From contig JACQDV010000066.1 of the NCBI GenBank assembly GCA_016200915.1, positions 1 to 64,000 of the forward strand: DNA of 64,000 bases, given 5' to 3'. The stretch is from Sphingobacteriales bacterium (GTDB taxonomy: Bacteria > Bacteroidota > Bacteroidia > Chitinophagales > Chitinophagaceae). Under the pieces are notes generated by a model. That model was given only the letters and a program-made list of their open reading frames with translations, was not told the origin of the DNA and made no database searches. Below, piece by piece: positions 15,974 to 20,675 of the stretch (positions within the stretch are counted from its first letter, which is position 1; every line of letters starts with the position of its first letter). Position numbers and translations under genes: made by a program.

Positions 15974-16705
15974 TTAAAACTTATTCTGAATAATATAAGG
16001 CAACATATTTCTCCACGTGGGCCAATCATGATGAATATCGTTACCCCACACATCTAAGTCGTGCCAGATGCCTTTATCCCATAATACTTTCGAAAATCTT
16101 TTGTTGGCTTCGGGATCTTCATAGTTACCGCTTCCGGTATAGATATGAATATTACTGCTGCGCTTGTAATTATCAAAGTACCATGCATCTTCTAAGTTAG
16201 GAATGTAATGAATAGGACTGTTATAATAAACCTGGTCGTCCCAATGCCCTTTGGTGTATTCAGTTAAATCATACACACCACTCATTGAGATAGCACCATT
16301 AATAATATCAGGTCTTTTTAAATACAGGTTCATTGCATGTAATGCACCAAAGGAAGCACCGCAGGTGATAATAGGAGTTTCGCTGCTGGTAGTTGATTTG
16401 ATATAAGGAACCACTTCATTAAATACATACTCATTAAACTGGTTATGACGGATGGCTTTATGCTCTGGCAGCATTTCATTATTGAGCCAGCTTTCCTTAT
16501 TGATGCTATCGATAGAAAAAACTTTCATTTTACCGGCGTCAACAAATGGCTGCAATGCCTCCATCATTTGAAAACGTTCATATTCTAAATAATCCGCCGC
16601 CGCAGTTGGAATTAACAACAAGGAAAAACCATAATGTCCGTAAGAAGCAATGGGCATATCTTTTCCTAATGAAGGACTATACCAACCAAATAATTCTCTG
16701 TTCAT
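15974..16705 (-). CDS. esterase-D-like alpha/beta hydrolase
   Basis: This 243-residue protein is of the putative esterase family (PF00756-like). The nucleophile elbow CGASFGALHAM carries Ser near residue 131. The C-terminal HHDWPTW carries the expected catalytic His, and an Asp/Glu in the IYTGSGNYEDP segment would complete the triad. There is no signal peptide, so it is likely cytosolic. ATG at 16703-16705. It lies 49 bp downstream of the WD40-caspase gene's strand neighbour start, in the same orientation but with no clear operon. Natural substrate unknown. Related proteins act on acyl esters or S-formylglutathione. Confidence 0.75.
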   Translation of the reverse strand: MNRELFGWYSPSLGKDMPIASYGHYGFSLLLIPTAAADYLEYERFQMMEALQPFVDAGKMKVFSIDSINKESWLNNEMLPEHKAIRHNQFNEYVFNEVVPYIKSTTSSETPIITCGASFGALHAMNLYLKRPDIINGAISMSGVYDLTEYTKGHWDDQVYYNSPIHYIPNLEDAWYFDNYKRSSNIHIYTGSGNYEDPEANKRFSKVLWDKGIWHDLDVWGNDIHHDWPTWRNMLPYIIQNKF

Positions 16706-16754: not shown

Positions 16755-19700
16755 TTATTTGTTTGCTGAAAGCCACTCAATGGCCTTTGCTGTTACGTTT
16801 TGGGCAATAGCCTCTGGTTTATCGGTGGTACCTCTTACATCAAACTTGCAGAGGGTTTGATTGTTTTTGCGAATATTGACTTTTAGCAGAATGTCAGAGC
16901 CGGTTAAAGTGTAGCGTCCGCTCAAATTATAAGCATCCGTTGCTGAATAGGGCAGGTAAGAGATTTTGCTATCCACAGCACGAACTGATATATCGGAAAG
17001 TATATTATCCACCAGTTTATTCATACCTAAGTTATCCGCAGCAATATCTTCATCGCTGTTTTGAAAATTGCTGGCAGCAAACACAGGCTTTTCATTTGGT
17101 AAAACAATTTTATTTCGTACTTCATCATCCACAACACCAATCGAAAAATTCGTTGTACTTACCAATTGTGGTTGTTGCTGGCCACCGTTTACAGCTGCAA
17201 TATTGCTGACTGTTTTTTCTGCCGCATCAAACCAACGATATACGCTGAGATATTTTCTGTCCTCTAATACTTCCGGTTGTTCCTTTATGGCTTTCAACAA
17301 AGAGTAAGTGAGCAGTCCCTGTGAATATTTACCCATTTCATAAGCATATTGATTACTGGCCGAAGCAGAAAGAATAAATAATCCTGATTTATTATTCAGC
17401 TTTTCAACCGCTTTAATTTGTTCAGCTTTTTCATCATCACGTGCAACTAAATATTTCTGATCATCATTACCAATTTTTACCAGGTCTTTAATTGCCTGTC
17501 CGCTGTTACAGGCATCAAATACCAGTATTCTTTTTTGTGCTTTCATTTTAGATGGCTGAATCCAATCTGTTAACTCCTGCATACTGATGCCCACATCACT
17601 TATAGCAGAAGTAACTGTTTCTTTAGAAGCATCGGCCGTTAAAAAGAAAAACTGGTTTTTATCTTTATCCCATTTGCCATGACCTGCAAAGAAGATCAGC
17701 AAAATATCGTTGGGCTGTGCTTTCACTCCAATATCATTAATTATTTTTCTTATACTGTTCTTTTCCGGGAACAAATCGTGCCCTTCAGCCGTATGAAGCT
17801 TGTAAACAAACACATGATTTTTATCATCTGTATTCAATAATTTTTTTGCACTCATTTCTATAGCTCCGGCAATATCATTGGCATCTTTGGCAGCATAGCG
17901 CAAGTCAAGTTCTGTTCCCTTATAATCACTTACGCCAACAACCACTGCATATAAATTAGGGGCAGTTTTAATAGTCACAGGAACACCTTGTTCTTCCACA
18001 ACTGTTGAACGACTGCTGATATCGTTGGAGGCAGTTAGTGCTTTTACATTAATACTGTTAGTCTCTCCGGGAACAAAATATTTTTGAATAGCTTTTTTAT
18101 CTACTTTCAATAAATATTCGTTTCCATTTTTCTGCAAATCTTTACTTGTCAATCGTAATGACTCTATATTATTTACAGATATAATAACATCGCCCAGGCC
18201 ACCACGTCTTGAAGTAATTTGAAACTGGTAATTATCTTTAGTTTCTTCTTTTGTTTCTACCAGTGGAATTAAATTACAAACGTTTAATTCTGCCAGCGTA
18301 GGTGCATTAATGGTATCACCTTTCATGATTCTTTCTGCGAGGTTGGGCACCCAGAGCTGGTCCTTCACCTGGTCAAGATCAATTATTTCATCTCTGCATA
18401 CATAGTATAATTTTTTTCGGGCATCTTCTGTACCGTCATAACGACCATATTCATCTGTCAACAGATAGCTGCCATTTTCGAGAGCATAATAGGTATAAAG
18501 AATTTTACCGGTAACAGTACTCCAGATTTTTAATTGTTTGTCGGGTGCTTCAGTTAATATGTATTTACCATCTTCACTAAAATCAGCAAAACTTACAGCC
18601 CCGGGCAGAGTGAATAAAAGTTTATTGGAATAAGACTCATATAACGCAGAGCTGTTGTCACAAGAAATCAATACTTTTTGCCCGTCTGCACTTATGGCCC
18701 ATCCGGGTAACCAGTTAGTACAATTATTTTCTACGGAAATAACTTTACGAAAGGTTTTTGAATCCCAAATAGTAATAAATCCTGTTAATGCATCAAAATA
18801 TTTAAAGCTATCAGAAAAACCAGTTCGAATATAACTTCTGGGCAGAGTGGAGTCTTCCACTTCAAAAACCGGTTTACCTGTTGCTAAAGAAATAATATTA
18901 ATTAAACACGAGTTTCTTGCATTGCCTGTTTCAGCTACAACAGTATCTTCTTTAATAACATCTTTGTTAACAGCCGTATCAGTATTATCTAATTCTTTTT
19001 GCAGATCGTCCCACATTTTGTCTAATTGCTTTGAATTAATATAGGCATTTCCACTTCCCCAAATTAACAGACTGTCGTTCTTACCGAAGGCTACAGATTC
19101 AGGGCTGCCATATTTACAAAAAACCTGGTGAACTAAATCCCCGCCAGCGGCACTCCAAATACGTAACAGACTATCGCCAGTGCGGTAACCAGCTATAAAT
19201 TTTTTTGTATTTGAGATAGTTACGGTTGGGATATAATTCATTTTTCCCTTAAGTGAGACTGTGTCTTTTCCGGTAACGACTTTCCAAATACCGGTTAAGG
19301 TATCTAAAAAAGAATAAGGTTTTATTATATTACTTTCATCTTTACCTTTTTCTAAACCATAGCTTGTATCATACGAAGAAGTGAATTTACCCCCGGATAT
19401 ATCCCATGAATATTTTCCTGCATTACCTGATGTTGTGTAAATAAATTTACCATCGTTACTGAAATACTGGTTTGGCTCAAAGGAGATATTGCCTTTAATA
19501 AGATGGATCCGTTCCCCTTTTATATTATAAAGTGTTGCAACCCCTTCGGTAGTTTTTAATATATATCTTCCATCAGGGTCCGTATAAAATACCGGCACAT
19601 AATTGTAATTGTTTTCTTTTATTTGTCCTGTTTTGTTGTATTGATTTCCTGTAATGGTGTATATATAAAAGCCTGTTGAAGTTGAGACAAACAAATGATT

Positions 19701-20675
19701 ACCGGAATTATCAAATTCTACCTCTTTAATATTTCCATCAGGGACAGGCCCTTTAAGTAATGTAGTTTTATGAAGTAAAACTTCCGTTATTGCGGGAGCA
19801 AAGTTTTTATTATCATTTACATCAGTATTTAAACCTATTCCGCTTTCCCGCATAGGATCATATTTACTGGCGGTAAAAAGATAACGCATATTTGCGCTGA
19901 ACTTTGGTTTCATAAATAAGGAACCGTACAGAACCGATTCAAACTTTTTTTTCCCGTTTGATATGTCTAATATTTCAAATCCATGCTCTGTTAACAGGTA
20001 CAGGTATTTGTCATCTGGCGAAAATTTAATTGAATGTTTATAACCAATCCGTTCTATCAAAAATTTCCCTTTTAGCTTATGTGATGTAATATCCCAAACA
20101 AAAAGACTGTCGCCATAAGTTGTGATAGCAGCTACTGTTTTTTTATCGTTACTAACAGCCCCTTCATCAAATGGGTTAGCATCCGAATCTGTAGCTTTTT
20201 CGTTAACCGTATAGTCAAGTTTGCCTGTTTCAACTTCCCATACCTTTATACTTTCTCCATCCAGTATCATCATTTTCTTTTTAACAACAGACGCAAGCCA
20301 ATGGATATTTTTTGTAAAACGTTTTTCTGTATTATAATTTATTTTTTCTTCCCCGCTCTTTATATCCCAGATTTTAATATTACCATCTTCATAAGACGAG
20401 GTTATTAAATAATTACCGTTGTCAATAAACAAAAGCTGGGTAATTGCTGCTTTGTGGCCATATAAAGTTTGAAACAAGCGACCTGAGCTGATATCCCAAA
20501 TTTTGATTGTATTATCATCTGCAACCGTAACAAGCAGTTTGCCATTGGGGCTAAAACATGCATCAGCAATCTCTCCGGTATGCCCAACAGGAACTACTAA
20601 CCTCAGTTGCTGGGCAATTGAGCAAAATGTAATGTGTAGCAAAAAAATGATAATAAAGCATGATTTAAATCGCAT
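16755..20675 (-). CDS. exported WD40-repeat / caspase (peptidase C14) fusion protein
   Basis: From the ATG at 20675 the protein has 1306 residues with a signal peptide (MRFKSCFIIIFLLH, cleavage near SIAQ). An upstream in-frame start would bury the signal, so I reject it. Residues about 25-780 are WD40 propeller repeats (blades ending IKIWDI, LKIWST). Residues about 915-1170 are a caspase/metacaspase domain: VVVGVSDYKG strand 1, catalytic His in FFAGHGKW near 995 and catalytic Cys in VFDACNSGQ near 1053. A C-terminal domain of about 130 residues is unrecognised. Export implies action outside the cytoplasm. Such fusions have known relatives in Bacteroidota, but substrates are unknown. Confidence 0.85.
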   Translation of the reverse strand: MRFKSCFIIIFLLHITFCSIAQQLRLVVPVGHTGEIADACFSPNGKLLVTVADDNTIKIWDISSGRLFQTLYGHKAAITQLLFIDNGNYLITSSYEDGNIKIWDIKSGEEKINYNTEKRFTKNIHWLASVVKKKMMILDGESIKVWEVETGKLDYTVNEKATDSDANPFDEGAVSNDKKTVAAITTYGDSLFVWDITSHKLKGKFLIERIGYKHSIKFSPDDKYLYLLTEHGFEILDISNGKKKFESVLYGSLFMKPKFSANMRYLFTASKYDPMRESGIGLNTDVNDNKNFAPAITEVLLHKTTLLKGPVPDGNIKEVEFDNSGNHLFVSTSTGFYIYTITGNQYNKTGQIKENNYNYVPVFYTDPDGRYILKTTEGVATLYNIKGERIHLIKGNISFEPNQYFSNDGKFIYTTSGNAGKYSWDISGGKFTSSYDTSYGLEKGKDESNIIKPYSFLDTLTGIWKVVTGKDTVSLKGKMNYIPTVTISNTKKFIAGYRTGDSLLRIWSAAGGDLVHQVFCKYGSPESVAFGKNDSLLIWGSGNAYINSKQLDKMWDDLQKELDNTDTAVNKDVIKEDTVVAETGNARNSCLINIISLATGKPVFEVEDSTLPRSYIRTGFSDSFKYFDALTGFITIWDSKTFRKVISVENNCTNWLPGWAISADGQKVLISCDNSSALYESYSNKLLFTLPGAVSFADFSEDGKYILTEAPDKQLKIWSTVTGKILYTYYALENGSYLLTDEYGRYDGTEDARKKLYYVCRDEIIDLDQVKDQLWVPNLAERIMKGDTINAPTLAELNVCNLIPLVETKEETKDNYQFQITSRRGGLGDVIISVNNIESLRLTSKDLQKNGNEYLLKVDKKAIQKYFVPGETNSINVKALTASNDISSRSTVVEEQGVPVTIKTAPNLYAVVVGVSDYKGTELDLRYAAKDANDIAGAIEMSAKKLLNTDDKNHVFVYKLHTAEGHDLFPEKNSIRKIINDIGVKAQPNDILLIFFAGHGKWDKDKNQFFFLTADASKETVTSAISDVGISMQELTDWIQPSKMKAQKRILVFDACNSGQAIKDLVKIGNDDQKYLVARDDEKAEQIKAVEKLNNKSGLFILSASASNQYAYEMGKYSQGLLTYSLLKAIKEQPEVLEDRKYLSVYRWFDAAEKTVSNIAAVNGGQQQPQLVSTTNFSIGVVDDEVRNKIVLPNEKPVFAASNFQNSDEDIAADNLGMNKLVDNILSDISVRAVDSKISYLPYSATDAYNLSGRYTLTGSDILLKVNIRKNNQTLCKFDVRGTTDKPEAIAQNVTAKAIEWLSANK

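What the first reader, a model, noticed from the sequence alone, without database searches (positions are those of the whole stretch)
16755..20675. Exported WD40-caspase fusion with complete His-Cys dyad
A signal peptide, a long WD40 region and a C14 domain with intact FFAGHG and DACNSG are joined in one chain of 1306 residues, plus an unrecognised C-terminal domain of about 130 residues. Most bacterial caspase homologs act in the cytoplasm; an exported one raises the question of substrate and of activation. The neighbours are housekeeping, so this is a lone effector, not a visible defense cassette.
Basis: partly seen in the sequence, partly recalled or inferred. Interest (0 to 1): 0.55.

Follow-up and report, generated by a model that had tools for sequence, protein, structure and literature searches.

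The report
Exported caspase with swappable sensors
The window encodes a large protein that carries an export signal, a long recognition region, a caspase-type protease with intact active-site residues and a small end domain shaped like part of the envelope protein TolB; relatives occur in many Bacteroidota, often side by side, and some have kept the same protease while exchanging the parts around it.

Summary
ORF 16755-20675(-) encodes 1306 aa: signal peptide (SIA|QQ), ~745 aa of WD40 repeats, a beta-rich linker, a caspase (C14) domain with His999 and Cys1056, and a 130-aa C-terminal domain. Four additions. (1) The C-terminal domain is predicted to have the TolB N-terminal fold (4pwz, Z 11.6, 102 residues, rmsd 2.7), without sequence similarity or a Pfam family. 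(2) The architecture is a Bacteroidota-wide family; export and catalytic residues are conserved. (3) Relatives often sit beside other caspase homologs (45 of 87 genes); this copy is solitary, in a conserved uvrB-polA position. (4) Three tandem pairs are mosaics: linker plus caspase are recent (dS 0.54-0.74), WD40 and C-terminal core saturated or nearly so. Best reading: a periplasmic metacaspase-like protease, probably cutting after Arg/Lys, gated by a WD40 sensor that lineages exchange. Fold, export signal and mosaicism rest on computation; activity, ligand and substrate are inferred.

The parts
20613..20675 (-). Signal peptide, residues 1-21 (MRFKSCFIIIFLLHITFCSIA | QQ...), predicted SPI cleavage with Gln at +1 (Bacteroidetes Q-rule)
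   Evidence: sequence; strict test and family counts; Q-rule from abstracts of PMC5837995 (start, listing) and PMC10653852
18381..20612 (-). WD40 region, residues 22-765; fastest-evolving part apart from the signal peptide, at background identity to every close relative but the sister species
   Evidence: Pfam WD40; dN/dS 0.18; identity 69% to L037, 25-31% to the next 13 relatives by C14 identity
17982..18380 (-). Beta-rich linker domain, residues 766-898, moves with the caspase core in relatives
   Evidence: model secondary structure; shared block in tandem pairs
17151..17981 (-). Caspase (Peptidase_C14) domain, residues 899-1175
   Evidence: PF00656; metacaspase-4 6w8r Z 19.2, 214 aligned, rmsd 3.0
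17883..17885 (-). Asp931, at the start of caspase helix alpha-1; proposed S1-pocket acid
   Evidence: invariant in 92 of 92; equivalence to TbMCA2 Asp95 inferred from position on alpha-1 (passages)
17679..17681 (-). Catalytic His999 (FFAGHG)
   Evidence: 92 of 92 aligned family sequences
17514..17516 (-). Asp1054, two residues before Cys1056; proposed second S1-pocket acid (TbMCA2 Asp211 analogue)
   Evidence: 91 of 91 with a residue
17508..17510 (-). Catalytic Cys1056 (DACNSG)
   Evidence: 91 of 91 with a residue (one gap, L097)
17385..17492 (-). Loop between large- and small-subunit parts, residues 1062-1097; possible self-processing site (Arg1079, Lys1088)
   Evidence: pLDDT <50 over model 294-345; K/R in 74% and 96% of sequences at 1079 and 1088; processing itself is inference
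16758..17150 (-). C-terminal domain, residues 1176-1306, predicted TolB-N-like fold
   Evidence: model pLDDT 80.6; Foldseek E 1e-4; VIA Z 11.6; no credible Pfam family

Best explanation
It is a periplasmic, metacaspase-like cysteine protease kept latent in a multi-domain chain. Sec and signal peptidase I export it, leaving an N-terminal Gln expected to become pyroglutamate. The WD40 region acts as sensor; ligand binding releases or rearranges the caspase domain, probably with self-cleavage in the basic loop 1062-1097; the active enzyme cuts after Arg/Lys, because both expected S1-pocket acids are invariant. The C-terminal TolB-N-like domain docks the protein on an envelope partner or gates the protease. 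Across the family, the linker-caspase cassette is retained and homogenised between neighbouring genes while WD40 and C-terminal parts differ, so different lineages couple the same enzyme to different ligands. Shown by computation: architecture, export signal, predicted folds, conservation, mosaicism in relatives. Inferred: latency, activation, cleavage specificity, ligand, substrate, and that the ligand is a foreign or misplaced envelope protein.
For: Domains. Export: strict signal test passed by P0001 and 60 of 83 family members vs 1 of 830 internal pseudo-starts; no T9SS sorting domain (NCBIfam TIGR04183 only 11.8 bits against cut-off 23, at residues 49-100). Catalysis: His 92/92, Cys 91/91, Asp931 92/92, Asp1054 91/91; caspase dN/dS 0.063 vs 0.18 in WD40 and 0.10 in the C-terminal domain against the sister species, with dS near 1.0 in both WD40 and caspase. 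Fold: metacaspase-4 Z 19.2; C-terminal domain TolB Z 11.6 and other envelope proteins (FlgT, CsgG, LptE, PqiC, PelC, TraT). Sensor exchange: tandem pairs L110, L085, L115 have linker+caspase dS 0.63, 0.74, 0.54 but WD40 dS 2.38, saturated, 2.31 and a saturated C-terminal core, with one long blastn block each that ends about 30 residues into the C-terminal domain (L085 has a second short block). Of 48 pairs with caspase identity of 80% or more, 24 have WD40 identity of 20-30%, the background being 28.3 +/- 5.1%.
Against: No activity, ligand, substrate or processing was tested. The mosaic evidence comes from relatives: against its sister species the window's own gene diverged evenly at synonymous sites in WD40 and caspase, so no exchange is shown for this copy. 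Of the 12 gene pairs (two with truncated WD40) only three are sharply mosaic. Pairs are not independent. TolB-N-like similarity is by predicted fold only; hhalign against E. coli TolB gives probability 0.2 per cent, and the same fold group includes ribosome hibernation factors. The scan that fetched 78 of the loci used the patterns [FL]DACNSGQ and L[KRN][YF]A[AGS]KDAx[DK], which inflates conservation of Cys1056, Asp1054 and Asp931; His999 and the 13 relatives found through one search are free of this. WD40 and C-terminal identities are not positively correlated at fixed caspase identity, which speaks against the two parts forming one co-evolving sensor.
Confidence: 0.5

Rival explanations
1. 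Envelope housekeeping protease: a regulated periplasmic protease whose WD40 region binds self proteins (envelope quality control or signalling), with no role in conflict; WD40 divergence reflects co-evolution with self partners.
For: Purifying selection in every module (dN/dS 0.04-0.35); this copy is solitary in a stable uvrB-polA position shared with L072 and L088; periplasmic WD40 proteins with structural roles exist in Bacteroidota (PG1058/PorE, passages of PMC5053529).
Against: Tandem arrays, different WD40 regions around a shared caspase and patchy presence of the C-terminal domain (7 of 392 phylum genomes) are unusual for housekeeping.
Confidence: 0.25
2. Envelope-side death or defence executioner: on sensing a phage or competitor component in the periplasm, the caspase destroys essential envelope proteins and kills the cell.
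For: Caspase effectors in bacterial conflict systems are described (eLife 2020, PMC7159879, passages); tandem copies with different sensors.
Against: No defence neighbours recognised in the window; PADLOC match is only the generic caspase model (43 bits); the conflict caspases in the passages read mostly work with NTPases.
Confidence: 0.14
3. Released protease acting outside the cell, e.g. in nutrition, with WD40 as a targeting module.
For: Signal peptide; some Bacteroidota secrete caspase-fold proteases such as gingipains (RgpB passage).
Against: No T9SS sorting domain found; the C-terminal domain resembles periplasmic envelope domains.
Confidence: 0.06
4. Non-exported or catalytically idle scaffold that uses the caspase fold for binding.
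For: One relative, L097, lacks the segment with the Cys, so the family tolerates at least one such copy (or it is an assembly error).
Against: His, Cys and both acids invariant elsewhere; signal-peptide statistics.
Confidence: 0.05

Closest known systems
Prokaryotic metacaspases/orthocaspases (Peptidase C14, PF00656)
   Same: Caspase fold, His-Cys dyad, acidic S1 residues, frequent WD40 partners (73 of 671 in PMC3501461; passages read); N-terminal helices there judged likely signal peptides
   Different: Here a defined Bacteroidota-centred family with signal peptide, WD40 first, beta-rich linker and a TolB-N-like C-terminal domain; the 2012 passages read do not describe this combination or domain exchange
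TolB (Tol-Pal system)
   Same: Periplasmic; a beta-propeller combined with an alpha/beta domain of the fold predicted here
   Different: Opposite domain order with a caspase in between, no sequence similarity seen, no Tol genes noticed nearby except one proton-channel-like gene beside L155
Conflict systems with caspase effectors (EACC1-caspase, VMAP ternary systems)
   Same: Caspase domain kept, attached domains varied (passages of PMC7159879)
   Different: NCBIfam EACC1-type caspase model scores 61.1 bits against a cut-off of 140; here exported and without NTPase
PG1058/PorE, periplasmic WD40 lipoprotein of T9SS
   Same: Exported beta-propeller protein of Bacteroidota (passages of PMC5053529)
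   Different: No protease domain; TPR and OmpA-like parts; lipoprotein
Gingipains (C25)
   Same: Exported caspase-fold cysteine proteases of Bacteroidota with basic P1 (RgpB passage)
   Different: Different peptidase family; secreted by T9SS

Membership tests
Peptidase_C14 (PF00656) | Match above curated cut-off | tested here: met
   61.1 bits vs 21.4
Peptidase_C14 (PF00656) | His-Cys dyad | tested here: met
   His999, Cys1056; 92/92 and 91/91 in the family
Peptidase_C14 (PF00656) | Caspase fold | tested here: met
   Model of 765-1306: metacaspase-4 6w8r Z 19.2, 214 aligned, rmsd 3.0
Metacaspase/orthocaspase (basic P1) | Two acidic S1-pocket residues | tested here: inconclusive
   Asp1054 two before Cys; Asp931 on alpha-1; both invariant; equivalence to TbMCA2 Asp95 not checked by superposition
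Metacaspase/orthocaspase (basic P1) | Cleavage after Arg/Lys | not testable with these tools
   needs assay
Sec/SPI-exported Bacteroidota protein | Signal peptide with Gln at +1 | tested here: met
   P0001 scored SPI-Q by a home-made test; no trained predictor available
T9SS substrate | C-terminal sorting domain | tested here: not met
   Only TIGR04183 at 11.8 bits (cut-off 23), residues 49-100, not C-terminal
EACC1-associated caspase (NF047832) | Match above cut-off of 140 bits | tested here: not met
   61.1 bits
Known anti-phage defence caspase systems | Caspase plus system partner genes | tested here: inconclusive
   PDLC02987 43 bits; only two window proteins were scanned in PADLOC, no partner model hit
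TolB | Sequence homology to the TolB N-terminal domain | tested here: inconclusive
   Fold Z 11.6 but hhalign against one E. coli sequence gives probability 0.2 per cent

The most novel reading that the evidence does not exclude
Bacteroidota keep an envelope-side recognition repertoire built like a modular immune receptor: one conserved exported caspase cassette (linker + C14) that is spread between neighbouring genes and joined by recombination to different WD40 sensors and TolB-N-like docking domains, so that the same executioner protease is armed against different periplasmic intruders.
Probability: 0.3. Interest if true: 0.78.

Novelty: new variant of a known kind. Interest (0 to 1): 0.52.

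Why it matters
Prokaryotic caspase homologs are mostly discussed as factors of cell death or defence inside the cell. A widespread exported family with an invariant active site, an undescribed envelope-type C-terminal domain and demonstrable exchange around its protease core offers a tractable way to ask what caspases do outside the cytoplasm, and gives a defined cassette, a candidate specificity and a candidate self-processing site to assay.

Tried and rejected
Rejected: 'one-off fusion' (78 loci from one scan; 101 ORFs with caspase and C-terminal module, duplicates between the two sources included). Rejected: T9SS cargo. Rejected: EACC1 caspase. Rejected as support: a first, lenient signal-peptide test passed 240 of 398 control ORFs and was replaced by the strict one. 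Rejected: the idea that WD40 and C-terminal domain form one co-exchanged TolB-like sensor; their identities are uncorrelated or negatively correlated within caspase-identity bands 60-70, 70-80, 80-90 (rho -0.10, -0.32, 0.00). Left open: non-tandem pairs such as L077/L073 have WD40 at 25% but caspase dS is itself near saturation (2.48), so exchange there is not shown. A tree-incongruence test was not run; nearest neighbours by caspase and by WD40 agree in 23 of 75, by caspase and C-terminal domain in 41 of 75. The WD40 region was not folded (the two folding jobs went to 765-1306 and to the C-terminal domain), so the number of propellers is not known. Sequence searches of the C-terminal profile against PDB found nothing credible. 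The list re-ranks Foldseek hits; absent families are not excluded. Literature: eight of ten searches used; none of the listed papers was seen to describe this family or the domain exchange, but I saw only listings, abstracts or passages, and the figures and tables of PMC3501461 were not seen. Rows dropped: C-terminal alignment A3 used 72 of the 86 references listed; locus statistics used 79 of 89 loci after removing duplicates; module comparisons used 75 sequences, complete and over 1000 aa; one search aligned 92 distinct sequences, the window's included.
Full report
Observation. The window's minus strand at 16755-20675 encodes 1306 residues. Pfam finds WD40 repeats from near the mature N-terminus on and a Peptidase_C14 domain at 909-1175. 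The active-site motifs FFAGHG and DACNSG are intact. The N-terminus reads as a Sec signal peptide with SIA|QQ; the Gln after the cleavage site fits the Bacteroidetes Q-rule (abstract of PMC10653852; start of the abstract of PMC5837995 in the listing). A strict home-made test scores P0001 as SPI with Gln at +1. It passes 60 of 83 five-prime-complete family members, against 1 of 830 internal pseudo-starts. Of the 23 that failed, most show by eye a hydrophobic stretch ending in AQ or similar, while a few are truncated.

The family. In 294 genomes drawn from the window's family, 93 have a match to the whole protein, many of them to WD40 only. Twelve genomes, the window's included, match across caspase and C-terminal domain at 38% identity or more (counted from the rows). 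A genome-collection scan gave 463 related stretches from 526 candidates, of which 78 loci were kept; by title they are mostly Bacteroidota, with some Gemmataceae, Acidobacteria, Chlorobiota and Ignavibacteria. Further exported WD40-C14 proteins lack the C-terminal domain (for example the DACQSA group). In 392 genomes drawn from the phylum, 7 have the C-terminal domain, and all 8 matches sit on a C14 protein. So the combination is widespread but patchy.

Catalytic residues. In 92 aligned sequences His999 and Asp931 are invariant, and Cys1056 and Asp1054 are invariant in the 91 with a residue there. The scan patterns favour Cys1056, Asp1054 and Asp931, not His999. Two acids in the substrate pocket of the metacaspase TbMCA2 (Asp95 on helix 1, and Asp211) accommodate basic residues (passages of PMC4357240 and PMC6426788). 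By position the two acids here are their likely counterparts, which predicts cleavage after Arg/Lys; this is inference. The loop between the two caspase halves is of low confidence in the model and carries a basic residue at 1088 in 96% of sequences, a possible self-processing site.

Structure. Residues 765-1306 were folded with 14 sequences (pLDDT 74.2); the caspase part matches metacaspase-4 at Z 19.2, with legumain, MALT1 and caspases below. The C-terminal domain was folded alone with 72 sequences (pLDDT 80.6). Foldseek ranks TolB first (E 1e-4); VIA-align gives TolB Z 11.6 over 102 residues at 2.7 A, then FlgT, CsgG, LptE, PelC and TraT among others. I regard no Pfam match among the 72 members as credible (most frequent DUF5640, 11 members, best E 0.0002), and hhalign against one TolB sequence shows nothing. 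I call it TolB-N-like in fold, not a TolB homolog.

Surroundings. In the window the gene lies between uvrB and a putative esterase followed by polA. The same order is found in L072; L088 has uvrB, the family gene and polA without the esterase. Elsewhere, 45 of 87 family genes with a visible neighbour have a caspase homolog next to them, and 38 of 79 loci hold a second one. A recurrent neighbour is an exported C14 protein, often with DUF4384. All five C14 proteins found in the window's genome have an export-type N-terminus.

Modules evolve differently. Against its sister species (L037) the window's protein is 90% identical in the caspase domain, 69% in WD40 and 74% in the C-terminal domain; dS is about 1.0 in both WD40 and caspase, so this pair diverged by ordinary descent with looser constraint on WD40. 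In three tandem pairs this is not so. In L110, L085 and L115 the linker and caspase are 95% identical (dS 0.63, 0.74, 0.54), whereas WD40 is 22-30% identical with dS above 2.3 or saturated, and the C-terminal core is saturated. Blastn finds one long shared block per pair, starting 5-50 residues before the linker and ending about 30 residues into the C-terminal domain; L085 has a second, weaker block at the end. Three of four orthologous pairs used as controls have broadly similar dS in WD40 and caspase; the fourth is saturated throughout. A pair from two different genomes, L129/L142, shows the break at WD40 only (linker+caspase dS 0.23, WD40 saturated). Gene conversion of the core or exchange of the ends would both explain this. 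The other nine pairs are not sharply mosaic: L096 drops mainly in the C-terminal domain, and L142 (first against third gene) and L043 show graded changes.

Reading. The evidence supports an exported, probably latent, metacaspase-like protease with an exchangeable sensor. Ligand, trigger, substrate and biological role remain open; conflict, quality control and cell death are all possible. WD40-caspase combinations and probable signal peptides in prokaryotic caspase homologs were reported in 2012 (passages of PMC3501461), so the kind is known. What is added is the defined family, the C-terminal fold and the mosaicism.

Noticed in passing
L110:1645-9513, L085:141-7608, L115:2-7593: Tandem paralogs share a linker-caspase block of ~1.3-1.5 kb at 86-89% DNA identity while WD40 and C-terminal parts are unrelated or distant.
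   Followed up: yes
L097:3835-7494: Family member whose caspase domain lacks the segment with the catalytic Cys while the C-terminal domain is present; natural dead copy or assembly error.
   Followed up: no
L044:12753-14804, L084:7657-9639, L103:7607-9646: Recurrent C14 protein directly downstream of family genes, with DUF4384 (two above, one just below the Pfam cut-off); possible partner.
   Followed up: partly
window 15974-16705: Alpha/beta-hydrolase (esterase-like) gene directly downstream, without an evident signal peptide; caspases of VMAP conflict systems are also paired with alpha/beta-hydrolase genes (passage of PMC7159879), but its relatives lie near family genes in only two of the fetched loci (L072, L089).
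   Followed up: partly
L155: A proton-channel protein of the MotA/TolQ/ExbB type (named by eye from its sequence) is encoded on the same strand as the family gene.
   Followed up: no
L106, L119, L120, L144: Contigs titled as Caenarcaniphilales, Actinomyces, Planktophila and Rickettsiales carry family members; probably misbinned Bacteroidota contigs.
   Followed up: no
L075:1481-2884: CHAT-domain protein (another caspase-fold protease family, PF12770, 159 bits) near a family gene.
   Followed up: no
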